The position numbers and the translations under genes are program-made. A stretch of DNA of 38,296 nucleotides from Methylobacter sp. (GTDB lineage: Bacteria > Pseudomonadota > Gammaproteobacteria > Methylococcales > Methylomonadaceae). The stretch is taken from contig JAUXXQ010000153.1 in NCBI GenBank assembly GCA_030684815.1, positions 1 through 38,296 on the forward strand, read 5' to 3'. Of the stretch, positions 8,581 to 37,683 are shown in pieces; position 1 is the first letter of the stretch; every line of letters starts with the position of its first letter. The notes beneath the pieces were generated by a model. The model saw only the letters and a list, made by a program, of their open reading frames with translations. It did no database searches and had not been told where the DNA came from.

Positions 8581-9055
<475 letters not shown>

Positions 9056-9208
9056 ATCAGCCGCAACCTGCCATTACTCCTATCCGAATTATTTACGCTG
9101 TTCTGCAAAACGCGACCTGATTAACCTGTAACGCCGCCAATACCGTTGACTTTAGCAAAGCGACCATTAGCGAAGCGGAACCCGCAGGTTACTACCCGAT
9201 TCTACATA

Positions 9209-9279: not shown

Positions 9280-10803
9280 CTAATTCCGCGCCATCACATC
9301 CGACGCCCCCACTAACCGTGACAACCAGGCTTCTGCGGCAACGCGGTTGCTTTTCAGTATGCTGTTTGGCGCAAAACCAAAATTCAAGACCAATAAGGCC
9401 GATACGCACAGCAGCGCCAATTCGCGCGGGCGCAAATCCTGTACTTGCCGGACGCTGTCGCGGATCACCGGGCCAAAAAAAGCGCGGCGGGTAAACGACA
9501 GCATATAGGCGGCACTGAGCACTGCGCCAAGCAAGGCGGCAATGCTGATGCTCGGATGCGCCAGCATGGTGCTGATAATTAGCAGCAGTTCGGCCGGAAA
9601 ACCGCTGGTGCCGGGCAGGCCGATACTGGCCAACATGAACAGAAAATAAAAGCAGGTCAGACGCGGCATGACGCTAGCCAAACCGCCCAAATGTATCAGT
9701 TCGGTGCTGCCCAGCCGGTGCTGTATGAATCCGGCCACCAGCATCAGCGAACCGGCAATTAGGGTGAAATTGAGCAATTGAAAAATCGCGCCCTGAATGC
9801 CGGACATATTCAACGAGGCAATGCCGACAATCACCAGACCGACATGACTGACGCTGGCGTAGGCCAGCAAGCGGCGCAAATTGGTTTGCTGCAAGGCAAT
9901 CAGGGCGCCGTACACCAGCGTGATGGCGCCGAGTATGCCCAGTACCCAGCTGTATTCAACCGCAGCAGAAGGTGCTAAAGGCATGACAAAACGGATGATG
10001 CCGAAAGCGCCGAGTTTCAGGCCGATTAACAGCGCTGTCATTTGCGTCGGGCCTTCCATAGCGACAGTCGGCAACCAAGTATGGAAGGGCGCCAATGGCG
10101 CTTTGACGGCAAAACCGAGCAGCAGCAATAAAAATACCCATCCCTGCAATCCATCAGGCACTGGCGTTGCCAGTAACACCGGCAGGCTAAAGGCCAAATC
10201 CTGCGGTATGTTGCCGCCCGTTACTGCCGCATGGTTTAATGCCAGAATGATAATGGCAAACAACAGCGGCACACCGCCAAACAACATAAACAAGGTGTAC
10301 TTTATCGCCGCACGGCGCCGCCCCGAGCCGATGCCCCACAAGCCGATTAAAAAGAAAATCAGCGGCAGGGTCAGTTCCCAGAACAAAAAAAACAGCACCA
10401 TATCCAGCGCCAAAAATACGCCCAGGGTAACGCCTTCCAGAGCCAGCAATAAGGCAAAATGCAAGCGGGTCTGATGTTGCACCGAATTCCAGGAGGCCAT
10501 GATCACCATCAAGGTCAGCACTGCCGACACCGGCAAAAACAACAGGGCAATGCCGTCTACGCCGATCAGGTAATCAATATTCAGGCTGGGTATCCAGGCA
10601 TGGCGTTCTAGCAGTTGAAAGTTACCGCCGAGGTCGCTATCAAACAGATTCACAACAACCAGCGTTGTAATCAATTCCAGCCCGGCAAATACCAACGCAA
10701 TCAGCTTTGCCAGACGGATGTCGCGGCTAACGGCTACCGCAAACGCGCCCACTAAAGGCAACAAAATCAGCATACTTAACACAGGGAAACTGACATTATT
10801 CAT
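9280..10803 (-). CDS. NuoM-like proton-channel subunit of the DAB operon (third NuoM-like)
   Basis: A 507-residue polytopic membrane protein of the complex I/Mrp antiporter-like family (PF00361 type). Ionisable residues typical of NuoM are present: Glu143 in FFLFWELTLP, Lys234 in GFAVKAPLAPFHTWLP, Lys263 in GLKLGAFG, His320 in SVSHVG and Glu405 in GFPAELLL. The start at 10803 is chosen over the ATG at 10812. AAGGATGG precedes it at good spacing, and it overlaps the upstream gene's stop by eight bases (ATGAATAA). It is the last gene of the five-gene DAB operon. No other complex I genes are nearby, so it is unlikely to be respiratory NuoM. It probably couples the proton gradient to the DAB complex, by analogy with DabB. 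An extra pump module is an inference. Confidence 0.85.
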   Translation of the reverse strand: MNNVSFPVLSMLILLPLVGAFAVAVSRDIRLAKLIALVFAGLELITTLVVVNLFDSDLGGNFQLLERHAWIPSLNIDYLIGVDGIALLFLPVSAVLTLMVIMASWNSVQHQTRLHFALLLALEGVTLGVFLALDMVLFFLFWELTLPLIFFLIGLWGIGSGRRRAAIKYTLFMLFGGVPLLFAIIILALNHAAVTGGNIPQDLAFSLPVLLATPVPDGLQGWVFLLLLLGFAVKAPLAPFHTWLPTVAMEGPTQMTALLIGLKLGAFGIIRFVMPLAPSAAVEYSWVLGILGAITLVYGALIALQQTNLRRLLAYASVSHVGLVIVGIASLNMSGIQGAIFQLLNFTLIAGSLMLVAGFIQHRLGSTELIHLGGLASVMPRLTCFYFLFMLASIGLPGTSGFPAELLLIISTMLAHPSISIAALLGAVLSAAYMLSFTRRAFFGPVIRDSVRQVQDLRPRELALLCVSALLVLNFGFAPNSILKSNRVAAEAWLSRLVGASDVMARN

Positions 10804-12343
10804 TATCGCCATCCTTCATGGGCATTTGTGCGCCGTGCATCGGAAATTGTCGGCCGATGGCGGCCGCATCCTGGTCGATAAAATTCAGCCACGGCGTGGT
10901 GTAAAAACCGGTGCCGATCAGCAGCAGACAGATAATAGCGGCGATGACGCGCTCCGTCCTGACCGGATGGTGCGCGCAGCTGTAAGGTTGTGCGGCGCGT
11001 TTGGGCGCAGCCATAAACATACGCTGAAAAGCCCATAACAAAAACGCGGCGGTCATCAAGTTGCCGACCAAAATGGCAATGGCCAGCAGCCAGCCGTATT
11101 CCTCAATAATGCCTTCAACCAGCAAATGCGCGGCATCGAAACCAGTAGTGCCGGGCATCACCATGGTGCTGAGCGCGGACAGCAAAAACAGCAGCGCCAG
11201 CGTGCCGTTGGTATCGAACAGGCCGCCCAGCCGGGGGATAAACGCGGTGCCGGTGCGTTCGTAAATCAGGCCGACACTGAACAACATGCCCGCCATTGCC
11301 AGACCATAAGCCACTGACAACAACAAAGTGCCTTCCAGGCCGTTGGCGTTAAAACAGAAAGCGCCGATGACCAGCATCCCGGTTTGGCTGATGACGGCAA
11401 AAGCCAATAAGCGGCGAATATTGACCTGCATCAATGCCAGCAGTGCACCATAAAAAATGCTGATGAGCCCCAGCGTCACCACAAACCCCGCCCATTGTTC
11501 GGCGACACCCGGCACCATCGGTAAAATGAAGCGGATAGCCGCATAAATGCCCAGCTTCAAGCCCACCAAAAACACTACGGTGCTGGCGACAGTGCCTTGT
11601 TCCGCCAACACCGGCAGCCAACCATGAAACGGAAATAACGGCATACGGATGGCGAAACCGAAAAACAGCAGGATAAAAATCAACACTTCATCATGTAAAT
11701 AGGCGTTGTTTTGTTTTAGCGTCAGCCAGTCGAAAGTCAGCGGATGGCTGGAATCAATCAGACCAAAAGCCAGCAACAAAAAACCGGCCAGCGTCAACAA
11801 CAAACCGCTAACCCAGTATTGCAGCAACAAAACGACCACCCAACGCCGGTTTTGCCCAGTCCCGGCATGAACCGTCAACAGCGCCACCGGCACCAGTTCC
11901 AGCACGCACCACAACCAGAATTGCATCACGTTCAGCGCGGTAAAAGCGCCGATCAAGATGGTTTCATAGCTTAACAGGCAGGCAATAAACAGCTTGTCGG
12001 TCGCATGCCGGGTAATCAGGGTATAAATCAATGTCAGCAAGGTTAAAATGGCGGTCAACGGGATAAACAGGATATTCGTCCCGTCTATGCCAACGCGGTA
12101 ACTCAAACCGGCAAAATGAAAATGTTCGCCCAGATGAATGCCGGGGTTGGTCGAGTCGAACACCGTCAGCAGATAGATGCTGAGCAACAAAGTCAACAAC
12201 GCACCGGAGAAACCGAAAACCAGCGCAATCCTGGTTGAACGGGACAGCAAAATGGCGATGGTCGCCGCCAATGGCACCAGCATCAGCGTCGTCAGCAACG
12301 GGAAAGCCGTCGAGGCCGACCAGTGGGTAATCGTAATGTCCAT
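10796..12343 (-). CDS. NuoM-like subunit with altered proton-path residues (DAB operon)
   Basis: A 515-residue polytopic membrane protein of the same family as its neighbours. FAIRMPLFPFHGWLP and VGLKLGIYAAIRF identify it as NuoM-like. Compared with the two sister proteins, the TM7 lysine is Arg233, the SxSH histidine is Gln320 and the C-terminal GFxAE glutamate is Ala405. The TM5 glutamate is displaced (Glu149 in CVLELVP rather than FWExxLIP). Lys263 is kept. It may therefore be a structural or non-pumping subunit. The start MDITITHW at 12343 is an ATG; the 20-residue extension to a TTG at 12403 would read toward a palindromic repeat and is rejected. The ribosome-binding site is weak. It overlaps the next gene and follows DabB after 150 bases. 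Confidence 0.83.
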   Translation of the reverse strand: MDITITHWSASTAFPLLTTLMLVPLAATIAILLSRSTRIALVFGFSGALLTLLLSIYLLTVFDSTNPGIHLGEHFHFAGLSYRVGIDGTNILFIPLTAILTLLTLIYTLITRHATDKLFIACLLSYETILIGAFTALNVMQFWLWCVLELVPVALLTVHAGTGQNRRWVVVLLLQYWVSGLLLTLAGFLLLAFGLIDSSHPLTFDWLTLKQNNAYLHDEVLIFILLFFGFAIRMPLFPFHGWLPVLAEQGTVASTVVFLVGLKLGIYAAIRFILPMVPGVAEQWAGFVVTLGLISIFYGALLALMQVNIRRLLAFAVISQTGMLVIGAFCFNANGLEGTLLLSVAYGLAMAGMLFSVGLIYERTGTAFIPRLGGLFDTNGTLALLFLLSALSTMVMPGTTGFDAAHLLVEGIIEEYGWLLAIAILVGNLMTAAFLLWAFQRMFMAAPKRAAQPYSCAHHPVRTERVIAAIICLLLIGTGFYTTPWLNFIDQDAAAIGRQFPMHGAQMPMKDGDNE

Positions 12344-12411
12344 CAGAGCTAGGTTCTCATTAATGATTGGGGCTGTTTTAAGAGTGGGAAAACGCCATAG
12401 CAATTTTTTGT

Positions 12412-12441
12412 ATCGTTCCCACGCTCCGGCGTGGGAACGAT
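12412..12441. repeat. REP-like palindrome inside the DAB operon
   Basis: ATCGTTCCCACGC and its complement form a perfect 13-bp stem with loop TCCG. A second, partial copy of the right arm (GCGTGGGAACGG) follows at 12477-12488. The repeat fills much of the 150-base gap between dabB and the degenerate nuoM-like gene. A strong hairpin there could stabilise the upstream mRNA or lower expression of the last two genes. Palindromes of this GTTCCCACGC type are common intergenic repeats in proteobacteria. Confidence 0.8.
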
Positions 12442-12493
12442 TTATCCCGCAACTTATCCATAACGATGAGCGCGGCGCGTGGGAACGGGAAAA

Positions 12494-14056
12494 TCAAAAC
12501 GCAACCAGCAAGGTGATGCCGACAAACAACACCAGATAGCGCGGCCTAAGCACCGACCTTTCAAAAGTATTGGCAATATGGCCTAACCAGCGGCCATAAC
12601 CAAGGGCATTTTTACCGACACCTTGCAGCACAAAATAGTGCTCAAACCAATGCAGGATGGTTGCCGTCCACTCGGTCAGTTTTCCGGCCAAACCGCTGCC
12701 TTGGGCGAAATCGTCGGAATCATTGTCCAAATGCGCGCCAATCATTTGTTCTTCCAATTGTGCCAATGACGAGATGGCGCTCAGCGCCGGAGCGCCGCCG
12801 CCCATCAAGCCGTCAATAATATGGTCGTCAAAATAACTCAAATCATGCGCCAGACCGCGTATCGGTTTGACCAGTGCCCAATCGGCCAATTGATCCAGCC
12901 AGAAGCGTTGGATTGAGGCGACATAACCGACGCGCCAGTTGGCAAGAGCCGGGGCAAGCGGTTTTATCGGGTTGTCGTGAACTTGATGCAACAGCGACGG
13001 CGCACTCAAAAATTGATAGCCGCGCACCACAGCATGGGCGCAAAGATGCCAGCTGGCCAGTTGCCAAAAACCTAGCCCGCACGCTAAAAACATCAACCCC
13101 AATTGCCCGGAAGTGGCAAAAATAAGTGAACTTTTGACATCGGTTTGGCTCAGGCCGACCACGAAACTATAGGCCGCCGTCAATAAGCCGGTGATGGCGA
13201 GCAAGGCCATAATCAGCGGTGCCTGCTCAAACAGCGGCTGCAACAAAATGACCAGATAGACACCGGCATGCACCATGACCGCGCCGTAAAATACCGCGCT
13301 GGACGGTGTCGGCCCTTCCATCGTCCGCGCCAACCAAGGCGTAAACGGCAATTGTGCTGATTTGACAAAAGCAGCGACAGCAAAACACAAGGTAACCACT
13401 ACGGCCTGTCCCGGCGTCAGCTGTGCCGATGCCGCGTTGATAACTTTCCAGTCAACGCTGCCCAGCCAAGCGTAGCTTAAACCGATACCCAATATGAAAG
13501 CGGCGTCGCCAATGCGGTTGGTGACGAATACACGGGTGGCATTGGCGGCGGCAAGCGGACGTTGATAAGTGTAGGCAATCAACAAATACGAACACAGCCC
13601 CGCCAACTCCCAGCCGATAAACATGCCCACCGCATTGCCCGACAACACCAGTAACTGCATGGCCGCCGCAAACAAACTGAGGACAAAAAAGAAGCGGTGG
13701 AAACCCGCTTCTTTGTGCATGTAGCGTATCGAAAAATGCATGACCACAAACAACAGCAGCGCAAACAGCGCCGACAGCCGCACACTAAAACCGGTGCTGA
13801 TAAAATTCAGCCGGATATTTAGCGTGTCGCTGCCCAGCCATTGGCCGAGACTGAATGAACCGATATTTTTGCCCATCAGGTCGGCAACCAACAAAATCAG
13901 CGCTAACAAGCAAGACATGATAACCGCCCCACCGGCAATATCGGCAGTCGTGTTTTCACTAGCCTCACCGCTGAGTGCGCCGCTAACATGGCCGATGCCG
14001 ATCACGGCAGCAGCCAACAGCGGCAATAACGGCAGTAAAATAACCACAGCATCCAT
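12494..14056 (-). CDS. dabB: DabB, NuoL-like proton-channel subunit of the DAB inorganic-carbon pump
   Basis: A 520-residue membrane protein of the NuoL/MrpA-like family. Visible landmarks are Glu150 in FIGWELAGLCSYLLI, Lys232 in AAFVKSAQLPFTPWL, His263 in VHAGVYL, Lys308 in TDVKSSLIF and HAVVRGYQFL, where NuoL has a Lys in place of Arg345. It lacks the later antiporter helices of NuoL (no GIPxxSGFFSKD segment) and ends in a soluble-like stretch followed by a final hydrophobic helix. This matches DabB proteins, which pair with DabA. The ATG at 14056 overlaps the DabA stop as TAATG, so translation is coupled. A longer frame to 14119 would overlap DabA by 64 bases and is rejected. Expected role: use the proton gradient to drive DabA. 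Confidence 0.88.
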   Translation of the reverse strand: MDAVVILLPLLPLLAAAVIGIGHVSGALSGEASENTTADIAGGAVIMSCLLALILLVADLMGKNIGSFSLGQWLGSDTLNIRLNFISTGFSVRLSALFALLLFVVMHFSIRYMHKEAGFHRFFFVLSLFAAAMQLLVLSGNAVGMFIGWELAGLCSYLLIAYTYQRPLAAANATRVFVTNRIGDAAFILGIGLSYAWLGSVDWKVINAASAQLTPGQAVVVTLCFAVAAFVKSAQLPFTPWLARTMEGPTPSSAVFYGAVMVHAGVYLVILLQPLFEQAPLIMALLAITGLLTAAYSFVVGLSQTDVKSSLIFATSGQLGLMFLACGLGFWQLASWHLCAHAVVRGYQFLSAPSLLHQVHDNPIKPLAPALANWRVGYVASIQRFWLDQLADWALVKPIRGLAHDLSYFDDHIIDGLMGGGAPALSAISSLAQLEEQMIGAHLDNDSDDFAQGSGLAGKLTEWTATILHWFEHYFVLQGVGKNALGYGRWLGHIANTFERSVLRPRYLVLFVGITLLVAF

Positions 14057-17000
14057 TACACGGCCCCCAACTGTCTGATCAATACCGGCTCCACCGCCCG
14101 ACTTTGACCGCGATAACAATCCAGTGAGTTTAGGCCAACCGGCAGTTCTTTGGCTTCAGCCTGCCACGGCACAAAACCGCTGCCTCGCTCGAAGATAAAA
14201 ATATCGCCGCTGTCCGGATCTTTAGCACTCAAATGCGCCCAGCCGCCGCCGATGAGTTCGCGCAAACTTTCTTGCCGCGCATAAATCTGTTCCAGCACCG
14301 CCGTTTTGGATTCAACCAAAATTTGCAAGCGCATCGGCTCGTGAATTTCCACCATCTGTTTAGGCAAGCCGGTACGTAAATCACTGGCCGCGCCTTCCAT
14401 CACGCCAAACAAGCCGGTGACGTTGTGCGGGATTTTGGTGCCGCAACCGAAACGCTCGTTGTCGATGGTGGAAAAATAATATTCCAGATTAATACCCGCG
14501 CCGACCGGCCCTGCAGTCAGCAAAATGGATTCAAGGATACTGCCGTCAGCGTCTTGACCAGGGTCATAGGAAATCAAAAAGACCCGCCGGTCCAAAAACA
14601 GCCCCTGCGTCATGGCGCGACGGCCTATCACCGCCGCCGCATTGGTGGCATGGCCGAATTCGGGACGGACTTGACTTAAATCCTGCGCCCTCAAGGTCAC
14701 ATGGCGAAAAGCCTGTTCGGGCGTAAGCGGGTTTTCCGCTGAAGCAAAGCGACGGCAGCGCTCATGCGCCGACAACTGTTGCGCCTCGCTGATACAGGTT
14801 TTAAAGCGGGCAAATTTTTCAGCCAGCGCCGCCGGAACCCTATCCACATCATACCAAGTCATCGCATCGCTGCAGGTATCGTGCTGCATCCCGACAAACC
14901 AACAGTCATCGGGAATGGCAATACCTTGCAACGCCAACAAAGCGCGCACCTCGGGCCGGTTTGCCATCGCCGCGAAAGCCCGCGCATTCGGTCCACCCTG
15001 CCGCCCGCCGCAGGCACCGCAATCATGCGCGGCTTCATGCGGATTATTCTGGCTGGTCGAACCGTGCCCTGCCAAGGCCACGATGGGCGCAAAATCAGCG
15101 GTTAAGCCCATACTGCGCAACAGCGCAGCAACACGCCCGGCTTGCTCGCTGTCAGTAAAGCCCAGCTTAATGTTTTCTACTGAAGCGGATGTTGCCGTGT
15201 CGGTCGAAGTCAGCTGCAATTCGGTAGCGACCGGCGGGATAACGGCCTGCTGTAGCCAATCGGAAACGGCCTTGTGGTAGCGAGGCAACAGCATTTTTCC
15301 CAGTATTCCAGTCAGAGTAAACGGCGCCAGCAAATCAATGCCGAGATGCGCTAATAACGGGTTGCTGCGCAGGCTATGATGCAGCTGATAAGCTAAACCC
15401 CGGCTCAAACGACGCCCTTGTTGGTGTTTCAGCAATATTTTTTCCTGGCCGACCTGGGCGACTTCGTCAACCTCATGCACCGGTGTGACCACAATCGGAC
15501 ATAGCGGCGTCAGGTGCGTCGCATCCAAACCTTTATAATTCATCGGGATGCCGAAAAAACCGGCCACCCCCAAGGTTTCAATAGCCGGATTCAACTCTTC
15601 TAAATGGCGACGAAAACTTTCTTCTCGCTCGTCCATACACAGCACAATGTGCGCTTCAGGGCGTTTAACCCGCTGCAGCCAGCCACCGCGCTGATGATTG
15701 GCGCGCAAAGCCTGAAACAAGTCATTGCGGTAATGATGCTCGTAAGCCAAGAGCCAAATTCTATTGCGTTCAGTCAGGGCGAAGTCATCCAGCACCGTCA
15801 GCATCGCCTGCAAATCGTTGCTGCTTAAGGCCTGCACATCAACAGTATTAAGCCCCAAATGCTGGCATAAACGGAACAAGCGCCAACCGCTGTTGTGGGC
15901 GCTGTGCGGATTAGCCTGCGCACAGGCACAATCGGCGCCGAGCAAACTTTTATCCGCCATCGGGCTGCACTGCCAGGTCCAAATCAGATCGGCCAGTTGC
16001 TGCCAGTCGCGGCGGTCATAGCGTTCGGAACCGGCGTGTAAAGTCAGCGTTTCCGCACGGTGCGCCAGATATTCCGGCAAGTCGCCTTGATACAGACGGC
16101 TGCGCACCATAAATTCGGACAGGTTTTTGCGAAAATAGCCCTGAAGCGCGCCGAATTTGGCTTCGATTTTCCAGGTATCGCGGCAAACCTGATTCAGCCA
16201 CAAGCGATCCAGCGTCAGCCGTATCGCCAGATAATCGGCCAATGTCGGCGCGGCATCATTGGCGGCATGGTAATTCGGATGCTGCTGGCGCCAATTAATG
16301 AGCCCCGACCAACCGGGTATTTCCAGTGCCAGACGCTGCAAATAACCTGACCATTGCGCTTGCGGAATATCCAGATGTTGCAGTTCAAGGATGATGGTAT
16401 CGACGGCATCATCGGGCAATTCGGCGACAATCTGCTGCCAGTCCGGCAATTCATGCAAAAAGGGGTTGGCGTCATACTGCGCGGTTGCGCGCCAGGCAGC
16501 ATAAAGGCCTAAGCGGCTGCGTTCAGGCAATTGCCAAGCGGCCAGTCCTTCATCCAGACCCGATGCGCAAAAGCGTATCAGCTGCGAACGCACCGCTTCG
16601 AGAATATCGGTGCCGGTCAAGGCCCGAATAAAACCCTGCAAACTGAGGCTGTCGCCAACCTCGCCCAGCAGTTTATCCAGCGCCGCACCGGCTTGTTGCT
16701 GCATGTGCTGATGGGTTGAGATGCCGTCTTCGGCAGTGTCCTGAACCTGCGCCAGCCAGTCTTCGGCCTGCTCCAGCGACAAATCCAGCATCGCCTCCGG
16801 ATGCAGCGCGGCCTGTTCCAGGCCGAGCTTGGTCAAAATGATTTCCCATAACGGCCGGATAGCATCGTCACTATCGGCAAGTAAACGCCGACGCATCAGC
16901 TCAGGCACATCATCCTGCACCTCCTCCAGCGCCGCCAATTCCTCAATTTGCCAGTTTAATTGACTGGCGCTAACCGCCTGCAAATCGAATAACAACGCAA

Positions 17001-17358
17001 CGCGGTAAATGGCGAGACGGGAGATGTTTTGCGTCGGTAACGTACAAACAATTTGCTCTGACTGCAAGTCCGGGCGCTGGGCAAATGCCGCCGACAAATC
17101 GTCTTCGTCAATGCGCCCTTGCCGGTAAAAATCGCGGCTTTGCGTTTCGGGAAGATAGCCGCAGATGCCGGTCAAGGTTTCAAATTCGGCCAGCGCCTGC
17201 TCGAACGGCAGATGCTGAAAACCATGCAACGTATTGTGATGCACAAAATCGAGTATCGGCCCCTGTCCGGGCAGGACATGATCGAGATGATGTAGCGCAG
17301 CGGTGATTTGCTCACGTAAGGAATGTGGCTGTTGCATCGTGTTATCTGTGTTTGTCAT
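14056..17358 (-). CDS. dabA: DabA, long form (DUF2309), carbonic-anhydrase-like subunit of the DAB pump
   Basis: An 1100-residue soluble or peripheral protein of the DUF2309 (UPF0753) family. In the DAB complexes characterised from Halothiobacillus, DabA binds zinc with a beta-carbonic-anhydrase-like set Cys-Asp-His-Cys and converts CO2 to bicarbonate vectorially. All four are visible here: Cys574 and Asp576 in [10 protein letters not shown], His765 in LAGHGSTS and Cys780 in AHDCGACGG. The 15-residue His-to-Cys spacing equals that of the known protein. The N-terminal [16 protein letters not shown] segment is also diagnostic. At 1100 residues it belongs to the longer DabA class (the Halothiobacillus protein has about 830). 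ATG at 17358 is used; Met8 is an alternative. It is second in the operon and translationally coupled to dabB. Confidence 0.92.
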
Positions 17359-17388
17359 ATCTCTGCGTTCTATTTTGTGCCGCCATCG

Positions 17389-18879
17389 CTACAAAATCCG
17401 CTGGCTAATCAGCTCATTCATCTGGCTGATGGTCGCGGCGGACAGGTTAAGCAGCGGCGACGGCATCAGGCCGAACAACACGATGCCGCCAACCAGTATG
17501 CCGGCGGCCAATAACTCCGACGCGTTTAAATCGTTTAGCGACTGCATAGCCGCTTTGCTCGGCCCGGTAAACAACAGGCTGATGGTGCGAATGCCGTAGG
17601 CCGCGCCGATTAACACGCCGACACTAAAAAACGCCATCACGCCGATAGCGGAGCCGGCATCGGCAAACAAGCTAAAACCGCCAATCAATATATGCAACTC
17701 GGCAATAAAGCCCACCGCACCGGGCAAGCCCATAGCGGCCAATAAAGTTAAAGTCATCAACAAAGTGAAGCGCGGCATCACCTGAATCAGCGAGCTGTAA
17801 TCCTGAATATTGCGGCTATGGGTGCGCTCATAAAGCAGACCAACCAGCAAAAACAAGGCGCCGGCAATCAGGCCGTGCGCGCTCATTTGCAGCACCGCGC
17901 CGGTGATTCCGGCCTCGTTCAAGGTGGCAACGCCGAGCAACACGATACCCATGTGACTGACCGACGAATAAGCCACCATCGCTTTCAGGTCGCTTTGCCG
18001 CCACGCCAAAAAGCCGCCATACAACATGCCGAACAGACCTAAAAAAATCAGGAACGGCTGCAATATTTTTGCCGCTTCCGGCAACATCACCACCGCCCTG
18101 ATCAAGCCGTAAGCACCCATTTTCAGCAAAATGCCGGACAGTAAAATACTGATAGGACTGGGCGCTTCCACATGCGCCAACGGCAACCAGCCGTGCAGCG
18201 GAAAAATCGGCATCTTGACCCCGAAACCGATGACAAAACCGACCAGCACCAGCACCTGCTCAACGCGGGGCATGTCCCGCGCCGCCTGATGCATAGACGA
18301 CATCAACGAACTGCCGTGTTCAAGGTCGTACTGACTGATGGCCAGTAGACTGATCAGCATGAAAATCGAGCCGCCCATCGTGTACAGGACAAAATTAAGG
18401 CTGGCAGTATGCCGCCGTGGCCCGCCCCAACGGCCAATCAGAAAAAACAGCGGGATCAGCGTGACTTCCCAAAAGATATAAAACAGCGCCCAATCCTGCG
18501 CCAAAAATACGCCCAACATGCCGAACTCAAGCAACAGCATACAGATATGGTAGCCCTTGACGCCATTGGCAACCGTCAGCGAGGCCAGCAAGGCAATCGA
18601 GGTCAGCAAGGTCGCCAACACCAGCATCGGCATCGATAGGCCGTCCACGCCAAGCGCATAAGCACTGTGCAATTTGGGATTGAGCGGGAAATATTCGTTG
18701 AACTGTAAGTTGGCATTTTCCGCATGATAAATATGCAGCAACCAGCAGACTAACAGCAGGGTGAGCGTGGCAAACAGATGGGTGATGTAGCGGATAAGCT
18801 GGCTATTTTGTCCCGGCGTTAACATCAACAGCAACACGCCGACGGCCGGAGTCCAGAGCAGTATGCTGAGTATCCCCAT
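17389..18879 (-). CDS. NuoM-like proton-channel subunit, first gene of the DAB operon
   Basis: A 496-residue polytopic membrane protein very close to classical NuoM. All key ionisable residues are present: Glu138 in FYIFWEVTLIP, Lys222 in GFGVKMPIFPLHGWLP, Lys253 in GILLKMGAYG, His309 in SSVSHMG, His335 in MSAHGL and Glu394 in VGFIAELHIL. It leads the operon, 30 bases upstream of dabA. AAAGGG sits about a dozen bases before the ATG. Absence of nuoA-L and nuoN nearby argues against complex I. It is interpreted as an additional proton-translocating module of the DAB complex. An alternative is that the operon encodes an ion-translocating complex only distantly related to known DABs. Confidence 0.87.
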   Translation of the reverse strand: MGILSILLWTPAVGVLLLMLTPGQNSQLIRYITHLFATLTLLLVCWLLHIYHAENANLQFNEYFPLNPKLHSAYALGVDGLSMPMLVLATLLTSIALLASLTVANGVKGYHICMLLLEFGMLGVFLAQDWALFYIFWEVTLIPLFFLIGRWGGPRRHTASLNFVLYTMGGSIFMLISLLAISQYDLEHGSSLMSSMHQAARDMPRVEQVLVLVGFVIGFGVKMPIFPLHGWLPLAHVEAPSPISILLSGILLKMGAYGLIRAVVMLPEAAKILQPFLIFLGLFGMLYGGFLAWRQSDLKAMVAYSSVSHMGIVLLGVATLNEAGITGAVLQMSAHGLIAGALFLLVGLLYERTHSRNIQDYSSLIQVMPRFTLLMTLTLLAAMGLPGAVGFIAELHILIGGFSLFADAGSAIGVMAFFSVGVLIGAAYGIRTISLLFTGPSKAAMQSLNDLNASELLAAGILVGGIVLFGLMPSPLLNLSAATISQMNELISQRIL

Positions 18880-36933: not shown

Positions 36934-37683
36934 ATGAACTACCCAGCCATTGCGCTTAACACTTGGAAATTATTTTTGCCTGTTCCATTAATACTGTCAC
37001 TCGCAGCTTGCCAACAAGAAGCGATCAAAACTTATAACCTGCCGGTTGTTGACCCTGGACGGCATCAATCGCCCATTAATATTTTTACCAAAGCCACCCA
37101 CAGGGAGTTTGAAGACCAGCATTTTACGATTCATTTTCAGGACAAGGTCAACGCTGTAGAAAATCTCGGCCACACCATACAGTTGGACTTTGCGCAAGGC
37201 AGCACGATAACCGCCAAAGGCATTACCTATGACTTCAAACAAATGCATTTCCATACGCCTTCGGAACATCTGATTGATGGCATTACCTACCCGATGGAAC
37301 TGCATATTGTCAGTGAGGAAGAAAATTCCGCCGCGCCGCATTATCTGGTGATTGCAGTCCTCTTTAAAATGGGCGAAGAAAACCGCTTTATTAATGAATT
37401 TTTAAACACCGTGCCTAAACATAGGCACAATAAGGCTAATGTTGAAACCGACCGCATCAAGTTAAGCGACCTTTCTACCGCCATGCCAATGGAAAATTTA
37501 GGCCATCATTATCATTACCAAGGCTCATTAACCACGCCGCCTTACAGTGAGAATGTCAGTTGGTTTGTACTGAAAAAGATTTTTGAAGCGTCGCCTGAAC
37601 AAATCCAAACGATTAACAGCATTGAAGGCAATAACGCCCGGCATCTCGAACCTAAAAATGACCGGATTGTTGAGGACAATTAG
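36934..37683 (+). CDS. Alpha-carbonic anhydrase, lipoprotein
   Basis: A 249-residue exported enzyme interconverting CO2 and bicarbonate. The N-terminal signal LPVPLILSLAAC has a lipobox (Cys26), so it is probably membrane-anchored on the periplasmic side. HQSPINI, the zinc ligands His105 and His107 in QMHFHTPSEH, His124 in MELHIV, Glu111, Thr200/Thr201 in GSLTTPP and the proton-shuttle-like His80 (NLGHTIQLDF) are all present, so it should be active. The usual TPPCSE cysteine is Tyr here, so the common disulfide is absent. No ribosome-binding site is visible before the ATG; TATAAA lies 23 bases upstream (36911-36916). A functional link with the DAB pump at 9280-18879 is possible but not shown. 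Confidence 0.93.
   Translation: MNYPAIALNTWKLFLPVPLILSLAACQQEAIKTYNLPVVDPGRHQSPINIFTKATHREFEDQHFTIHFQDKVNAVENLGHTIQLDFAQGSTITAKGITYDFKQMHFHTPSEHLIDGITYPMELHIVSEEENSAAPHYLVIAVLFKMGEENRFINEFLNTVPKHRHNKANVETDRIKLSDLSTAMPMENLGHHYHYQGSLTTPPYSENVSWFVLKKIFEASPEQIQTINSIEGNNARHLEPKNDRIVEDN

What the first reader, a model, noticed from the sequence alone, without database searches (positions are those of the whole stretch)
9280..18879. Enlarged DAB operon: long-form DabA with four antiporter-like membrane subunits
Known DAB pumps are usually described as DabA plus one DabB. Here a DUF2309 protein with an intact Cys-Asp-His-Cys zinc set (574, 576, 765, 780) is in one operon with a NuoL-like DabB and three NuoM-like proteins, with a TAATG overlap at dabA/dabB and an 8-base overlap between the last two genes. 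Complex I genes other than nuoL/M types are absent. This suggests a multi-channel version of the CO2 pump, coupling more protons per turnover, or one using other ions.
Basis: partly seen in the sequence, partly recalled or inferred. Interest (0 to 1): 0.75.

Follow-up and report, generated by a model that had tools for sequence, protein, structure and literature searches.

The report
Five-subunit CO2-pump operon in methanotrophs
A methane-eating bacterium carries an enlarged version of a known bacterial carbon-dioxide pump, with three extra ion-channel-like proteins; the same five-gene set recurs in other methane and ammonia oxidisers, so the extra parts probably do something, but what they do is untested here.

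Summary
On the minus strand lie M1 (NuoM-like), DabA, DabB (NuoL-like), M2 and M3 (both NuoM-like), with the zinc set C574/D576/H765/C780, the TAATG junction and the 8-base overlap as described. The 99%-complete genome, by similarity a Methylobacter, has only these four PF00361 genes, no NuoH and no RuBisCO, so the M proteins are not complex I parts. The same five genes in order occur in 30 of 32 relatives' loci read, 55 of the 80 best named loci and 18 of 20 loci sampled across the phylum. M1, M2 and M3 are three separate clades. M1 and M3 keep the canonical channel residues; M2 has lost two of them in 106 of 106 rows and has its own D-x-x-H-x-x-x-E motif. Some Competibacteraceae fuse DabB to M2, and one fuses M1 to DabA. 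DabA forms its own clade. Length is no marker, since DAB1-like DabA is long too. Prior art: COGNAT (2017) reported NuoM beside this gene family and proposed several ions per cycle. Best reading: a five-subunit, gradient-driven CO2-hydrating pump, a new variant of DAB. Ion, stoichiometry and physical assembly are untested.

The parts
17389..18879 (-). M1: NuoM-like antiporter subunit, 496 aa, first gene of the cluster; canonical channel residues E138, K222, K253, H309, E394
   Evidence: conserved in 116 of 116 rows (K253 in 115 of 116)
14056..17358 (-). DabA, 1100 aa, PF10070; zinc set C574 D576 H765 C780 plus R578
15289..15360 (-). codons of DabA residues 667-690: hydrophobic helix matching the membrane-inserted finger of DabA2; D675 at the E444 position (acidic in 58 of 100 rows) and K688 (K or R in 95 of 100)
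   Evidence: functional role inferred from the DAB2 paper
12494..14056 (-). DabB: NuoL-like subunit, 520 aa from the ATG of the TAATG overlap (residue numbers in the text count from the TTG at 14119, 21 more)
12414..12439 (+). palindromic repeat CGTTCCCACGC-TCCG-GCGTGGGAACG in the 150-base gap between DabB and M2
10796..12343 (-). M2: NuoM-like subunit, 515 aa from ATG 12343 (residue numbers in the text count from the TTG at 12403, 20 more); canonical E144 and E407 positions lost, K234 replaced by R253
11114..11137 (-). M2-specific motif D423-x-x-H426-x-x-x-E430 in the region of TM12
   Evidence: D or E 104 of 106, H 106 of 106, E or D 104 of 106
9280..10803 (-). M3: NuoM-like subunit (ATG 10803; the listed ORF starts at ATG 10812 and residue numbers count from there); canonical channel residues E146, K237, K266, H323, E408
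   Evidence: 99 of 99 rows at all five

Best explanation
The five genes encode one membrane-bound complex of the DAB kind. DabA (carbonic-anhydrase-like zinc site) sits on DabB and inserts a helix into it, as in DAB2. M2 lies beside DabB, with M3 and M1 as further antiporter-like subunits. An inward ion flow (probably H+) through DabB and through the canonical channels M1 and M3 drives one-way CO2 hydration to bicarbonate in the cytoplasm. M2, with its own D-x-x-H-x-x-x-E set, acts as a modified relay or coupling segment rather than a standard pump. The likely gain is more ions spent per bicarbonate, hence a larger bicarbonate pool at a given gradient. Shown here: gene content, conserved order, intact zinc set, intact M1/M3 and altered M2 residues, DabB-M2 fusions and one M1-DabA fusion, independence from complex I. 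Inferred: physical complex, subunit order, direction, ion and stoichiometry.
For: Conserved order M1-DabA-DabB-M2-M3 in 30 of 32 relatives' loci read (the other 2 run into contig ends), in 55 of the 80 best named loci, in 18 of 20 loci sampled in the phylum and in 5 more class loci, with 2 others cut by contig ends. Ten genomes with an interrupted or incomplete cluster all carry the matching DabB: 3 as the DabB-M2 fusion at the same locus, 7 on another contig. DabB-M2-M3 sit together in 4 of the 8 regions then read, not counting a second five-gene cluster. DabB-M2 fusions in one frame at L153, L156 (cut by the contig end), L161, L162, L190, L191, L237. One M1-DabA fusion of 1646 aa at L155. 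Zinc ligands: C 99, D 100, H 99, C 99 of 100 rows, and 21 of 21 in a distant set. Channel residues: M1 116 of 116 (one position 115), M3 99 of 99. M1, M2, M3 are single clades at SH-aLRT 100, 100, 99. No NuoH or other PF00361 gene in the host. DAB2 mechanism from the abstract and passages of PMC13144422.
Against: No transcript, purification or activity data. The DabB-M2 fusion model did not fix the relative placement of its halves (pTM 0.53). The finger carboxylate essential in DAB2 (E444) is an acid in only 58 of 100 rows. DabB has R for K347 in 112 of 112 rows and Y for H260 in 111 of 112, so the proton path differs from DAB2. Some DabA genes of this clade have no M neighbour: L303 and L304, L115 and L158; L237 and L238 have the fused DabB-M2 but no M1 or M3 in the region read. 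So a shared transcript is not essential, and the full set was not shown in every genome. The host has no RuBisCO, so concentrating carbon for the Calvin cycle cannot be the purpose here.
Confidence: 0.6

Rival explanations
1. M1-M3 are a separate cation/proton antiporter module that is only co-expressed with DabA-DabB, for instance to remove the proton released by CO2 hydration. There is no mechanical coupling.
For: The M proteins are PF00361 antiporter-like. DabA and DabB-M2-M3 can lie at different places in a genome.
Against: Small Mrp-type subunits, needed by known Mrp antiporters (recalled), were not seen among the flanking ORFs scanned, though they were not searched by name in the genome. 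DabB-M2 fusions tie M2 to DabB and one fusion ties M1 to DabA. Where the cluster is split, M1 stays with DabA in L131, L144 and L150, not with M2-M3.
Confidence: 0.2
2. The complex runs the other way: DabA catalyses an exergonic reaction and the antiporter subunits export several ions, the idea of the COGNAT paper.
For: Stated for YbcC operons with several membrane subunits. M1 and M3 resemble pump subunits.
Against: DAB2, with the same zinc site, is reported to take up CO2 in an uncoupler-sensitive way (passage). CO2 hydration or dehydration offers little free energy compared with moving several ions (established thermodynamics, not computed here).
Confidence: 0.08
3. The NuoM-like genes are stray or spare complex I subunits.
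For: They match the NuoM model over its cut-off.
Against: No NuoH and no other PF00361 gene in the genome. The operon occurs in relatives both with and without a full-scoring NuoH. All three form clades apart from the six NuoM rows.
Confidence: 0.02
4. DabA-DabB is the working pump and M1-M3 are structural or regulatory, with conserved residues kept for folding.
For: Two-gene DAB works without them (passage). M2 has lost canonical residues. Some DabA loci of this clade lack M neighbours.
Against: The E144, K234, K265, H322 and E407 positions are invariant or nearly so in M1 and M3 across the sampled rows, which folding alone does not predict.
Confidence: 0.1

Closest known systems
DAB2 of Halothiobacillus neapolitanus (DabA2-DabB2, PDB 9rd0)
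   Same: DabA family, same zinc ligands, NuoL-like DabB, hydrophobic finger helix
   Different: Two genes only. The DabA2 chain is 870 aa and falls in another clade. DabB2 has Ile151 where the five-gene DabB has Glu (111 of 112 rows); the 19 DAB2-like rows have H and K where the five-gene DabB has Y and R
DAB1 of H. neapolitanus
   Same: An extra subunit beyond DabA-DabB (passage); the DAB1-like loci have a long DabA, 1038 aa or more
   Different: The extra subunit is a small membrane protein, no NuoM; DAB1-like DabA forms its own clade. I had no DabA1 sequence, so the label rests on gene layout and the small gene was not annotated by me
YbcC 'clade C' operons with NuoM (COGNAT, PMC5700660)
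   Same: ybcC upstream of nuoL with additional membrane subunits including NuoM, and the hypothesis of several ions per cycle (passages read)
   Different: The passages also list a SulP-type transporter, not seen here; they give no five-gene composition, M2 motif or fusion. I did not read its supplementary tree
MpsAB / MpsABC
   Same: Described as a DAB homologue and bicarbonate supply system (abstracts in the listing; passages)
   Different: No NuoM-like subunits named in what I read
Two-gene DAB of the same family (DabA about 865 aa, DabB about 625 aa)
   Same: 16 of its 18 rows group with the five-gene DabA at 100 SH-aLRT. It occurs in some of the same genomes and lies on the same locus in L133, L140, L141. 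Its DabB shares Glu, Tyr and Arg at the three positions in 15, 15 and 14 of 17 rows
   Different: No NuoM neighbours; DabA shorter
Cyanobacterial NDH-1 CO2-hydrating complexes and complex I with duplicated NuoM
   Same: Antiporter-like subunits together with a CO2-hydrating or redox module (passages)
   Different: Those contain the redox part of complex I; this genome has no NuoH

Membership tests
DAB (DabA-DabB) CO2 uptake system | PF10070 DabA with complete zinc set and the Arg next to it | tested here: met
DAB (DabA-DabB) CO2 uptake system | adjacent PF00361 NuoL-like DabB, related to other DabB rather than to NuoL | tested here: met
   DabB groups with three of five short DabB at 99, NuoL apart at 100 (quick tree)
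DAB (DabA-DabB) CO2 uptake system | finger helix of DabA with essential Glu444 | tested here: inconclusive
   hydrophobic helix 667-690 predicted; the position aligns to D675, acidic in 58 of 100 rows
DAB (DabA-DabB) CO2 uptake system | gradient-driven accumulation of inorganic carbon | not testable with these tools
   needs an experiment
DAB2 subgroup | DabA in the clade of H. neapolitanus DabA2 | tested here: not met
DAB1 subgroup | DabB, small protein, DabA layout and DAB1-like clade | tested here: not met
   label by layout only
Complex I (NDH-1) | NuoH present with the antiporter subunits | tested here: not met
Mrp antiporter | small subunits MrpB, C, E, F, G beside MrpA and MrpD | not tested
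   not searched by name in the genome; none among the neighbouring ORFs scanned
COGNAT clade C | ybcC upstream of nuoL with a COG1008 (NuoM) neighbour | tested here: met
   gene order against the description; membership in that tree could not be checked

The most novel reading that the evidence does not exclude
A CO2 pump in gear form: DabB, M1 and M3 each pass an ion per turnover, and M2, which has swapped the canonical E144/K234 pair and exit glutamate for its own D-x-x-H-x-x-x-E set next to DabB, is the element that links catalysis in DabA to the distal channels. It would be a DAB class with a higher ion-to-bicarbonate ratio, shared by methane, ammonia and nitrite oxidisers.
Probability: 0.33. 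Interest if true: 0.8.

Novelty: new variant of a known kind. Interest (0 to 1): 0.6.

Why it matters
If the extra subunits are coupled, nature offers DAB pumps with different numbers of antiporter-like units and one catalytic subunit. That makes the ion-to-product ratio testable by deleting subunits in a system far smaller than complex I. It would also give methanotrophs and nitrifiers a defined inorganic-carbon uptake system, including hosts with no RuBisCO, where the need would be for carboxylations other than the Calvin cycle (inference).

Tried and rejected
Complex I leftovers: rejected. Long DabA as the marker of the enlarged system: rejected, because 17 of 20 long loci have one DabB and no M. 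Frame or assembly artefact: rejected by conserved order in many genomes. Fold search of the DabA model gave no match at E 0.001 or better; the best was a beta carbonic anhydrase at E 0.059. That library ends on 2026-04-08 and did not list 9rd0. The fusion model did not settle the DabB-M2 interface. Promoter scan: 7 sites against 7.4 expected; terminator-like sites: 29 against 19.0, mostly inside genes; neither was used.

Own errors corrected: I read M2 E169 and S339 as the E144 and H322 positions; the joint alignment showed the true columns, and only searches are used. I first took G684 as the E444 position; the larger alignment puts it at D675. The first fusion alignment (A5) put M2 rows on the DabB half and was replaced by A7.

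Literature: searches. DUF2309 is in 6 held papers. I read passages of four of these six, and in them and the other listings found no account of this five-gene set beyond COGNAT. Chadwick 2018 was not held. Desmarais 2019 I know only as cited in the papers I read. Most subscription papers are outside the library.
Full report
What is there. On the minus strand of the window lie, in transcription order, M1 (17389-18879), DabA (14056-17358), DabB (12494-14056), M2 (10796-12343) and M3 (9280-10803). Pfam calls DabA PF10070 at 847 bits and the other four PF00361. NCBIfam places M1, M2 and M3 over the NuoM cut-off. DabB matches NuoL models, below their cut-offs and up to about residue 383 only. That fits DAB2, where the region after TM11 is rearranged to take the DabA finger (passages).

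The catalytic subunit. C574, D576, H765 and C780 correspond to the zinc ligands of DabA2 in PDB 9rd0. They are kept in 99, 100, 99 and 99 of 100 DabA rows, and in 21 of 21 rows of a more distant set. The predicted model (mean pLDDT 80.1, pTM 0.78) has a helix at 667-690, the only strongly hydrophobic stretch by a simple scan, matching the DAB2 finger. The finger glutamate of DAB2 aligns with D675, acidic in 58 of 100 rows. K688 (K or R in 95 of 100) is more constant.

The host. The nearest named loci are mostly Methylobacter, so the host is inferred to be one. The 99.25% complete genome has exactly four PF00361 matches, all in this cluster, no NuoH and no RuBisCO large subunit. It has two matches to the beta carbonic anhydrase family and an alpha-type one in the window.

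Conservation. Of 61 genomes (own and relatives), 39 have a DabA match of any kind; 22 of 23 genomes of the genus have this long type. I read 32 long-type loci with wide flanks. A few long-type hits were not fetched that way: G003, G013, G014, G019 and the second one of G018. Of the 32, 30 have all five genes in order, one with DabB and one with M2 in two ORFs; the other two run into contig ends. Of these 80, 55 have all five genes contiguous: 52 alone and 3 with a two-gene DAB on the same locus. In L114 and L163, counted here, M3 is incomplete. The other 25 are cut by contig ends, split, fused or lack neighbours. The sets overlap. By record title, hosts of the contiguous set include Methylobacter, Methylomonas, Methylomicrobium, Crenothrix, Nitrosomonas, Nitrosospira, Nitrosovibrio and Nitrotoga. 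L162 (Contendobacter) has it with DabB and M2 fused. A Methylovulum genome (L131) has M1-DabA and DabB-M2-M3 on different contigs.

Wider sampling. In 274 genomes of the class, 68 have DabA. I read 20 long and 20 short DabA loci. Of the long ones, 17 are DAB1-like. L243 has the five genes. L237 and L238 have DabA of this clade and a fused DabB-M2, but no M1 or M3 in the region. Of the short ones, 19 have one DabB and one (L253) is an Mrp-like set. Of 16 more regions read, L307-L311 have all five, L306 and L312 are cut by contig ends, and the rest are other types, unclear (L313) or empty flanks. Not all 68 genomes were read. In 397 genomes of the phylum, 25 match this DabA at E 1e-150 or better. 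Of the 20 of these read, 18 have the five genes in order; L303 and L304 have DabA without M neighbours, and L319 and L320 show no partner on the further side read.

Linkage beyond order. Ten genomes with an interrupted or incomplete cluster were searched with DabB: 10 of 10 have it at 48-69% identity, in one case in two pieces. In three (L153, L156, L161) it is the fused gene at the same locus; in seven it is on another contig. Of eight regions then read, four have DabB-M2-M3 together (M2 broken in one), two have a fused DabB-M2, one has a broken fusion plus M3, and one is a second five-gene cluster with M1 cut. M1 stays beside DabA in L131, L144 and L150, whereas L115 and L158 have DabA with no partner beside it. 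DabB-M2 fusions in one frame (1037-1061 aa, or cut by a contig end in L156) occur in L153, L156, L161, L162, L190, L191 and L237. In L155 (Competibacter phosphatis) M1 and DabA share one frame of 1646 aa. This suggests M2 next to DabB and M1 next to DabA.

The extra subunits. A quick maximum-likelihood tree of 96 proteins gives M1, M2 and M3 as single groups (SH-aLRT 100, 100, 99), M2 and M3 as sisters (99), and six complex I NuoM as their own group (100); which M is nearest NuoM is unresolved. On one joint alignment of 327 rows, M1 keeps the E144, K234, H322 and E407 positions in 116 of 116 and K265 in 115 of 116; M3 keeps all five in 99 of 99. M2 has E144 in 0 of 106, R for K234 in 106 of 106, K265 in 106 of 106, H or Q at H322 (68 and 38), and an acid at E407 in 0 of 106. 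Instead it has D or E two residues before (104 of 106), H one after (106 of 106) and E or D five after (104 of 106); none of the six NuoM rows has these. The roles of E144/K234, K265, H322 and E407 in proton passage come from passages of PMC9271201. Rows include close relatives, so counts are not independent events.

Evolution. In a quick tree of 74 DabA, the five-gene DabA is one group (17 rows, 99). It joins 16 of the 18 two-gene DabA of relatives at 100, apart from DAB1-like (100) and from the group that holds DabA2 of 9rd0 (100). The program warned of long branches, and the root is a midpoint. DabB of the five-gene type and of that two-gene group share Glu, Tyr and Arg at positions where the 19 DAB2-like rows have no Glu, His and Lys. 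The simplest reading is that the M genes joined a two-gene DAB lineage. Of the relatives with this DabA, 14 have a NuoH of 348 bits or more and 8, this genome included, have none; the others have only low-scoring NuoH-like genes. Some of these genomes are incomplete.

How it may work. DAB2 is described as gradient-driven one-way CO2 hydration with the proton path through DabB and the DabA finger (PMC13144422, abstract and passages). The five-gene system keeps the catalytic site and the finger helix, adds two complete channels and changes a third. I infer a complex in which several ions are spent per bicarbonate. Ion, ratio and assembly are not shown. The alternative that M1-M3 are an uncoupled antiporter cannot be excluded.

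Novelty. COGNAT (PMC5700660, passages) already noted NuoM genes beside ybcC-nuoL and proposed that subunit number sets the number of ions. What I did not find in the papers searched is the fixed five-gene composition, the M2 motif, the fusions, the residue pattern and the clade. It is a new variant of a known kind.

Noticed in passing
   Followed up: partly
L075:6802-15278: A different multi-subunit DAB: DabA (1108 aa), DabB (683 aa) and two NuoM-like genes. Its M proteins form their own branch, and its DabA groups with that of L253/L264 at 93, which suggests NuoM was recruited to DAB more than once.
   Followed up: partly
L155:7357-12297: M1 and DabA in one 1646-aa frame in a Competibacter phosphatis record; fragments of a second DabA copy lie just downstream.
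   Followed up: partly
window 36934-37683 (+): Alpha-type carbonic anhydrase (PF00194) with a lipoprotein-like signal by eye, about 18 kb from the operon.
   Followed up: no
L265:1474-3456 (own genome, contig C171): A long frame that looks like a SulP-type transporter fused to a beta carbonic anhydrase (PF00484 match; SulP by eye).
   Followed up: no
L133, L140, L141: A two-gene DAB lies on the same locus as the five-gene operon in three of 80 loci.
   Followed up: no
window 12414-12439: Perfect palindromic repeat in the DabB-M2 gap; the same gap is longer in some relatives, for instance L033.
   Followed up: no
window 8732-9055 (+): Collagen-like Gly-x-Thr repeat reading frame next to the end of the operon, on the other strand. 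The frame that I scanned with Pfam (8662-9120) is a different one, so this frame was not scanned.
   Followed up: no
L041 and L078: DabB split in two ORFs about 900 bases apart (L041) and M2 in two ORFs (L078): possible insertion or frameshift in otherwise intact clusters.
   Followed up: no
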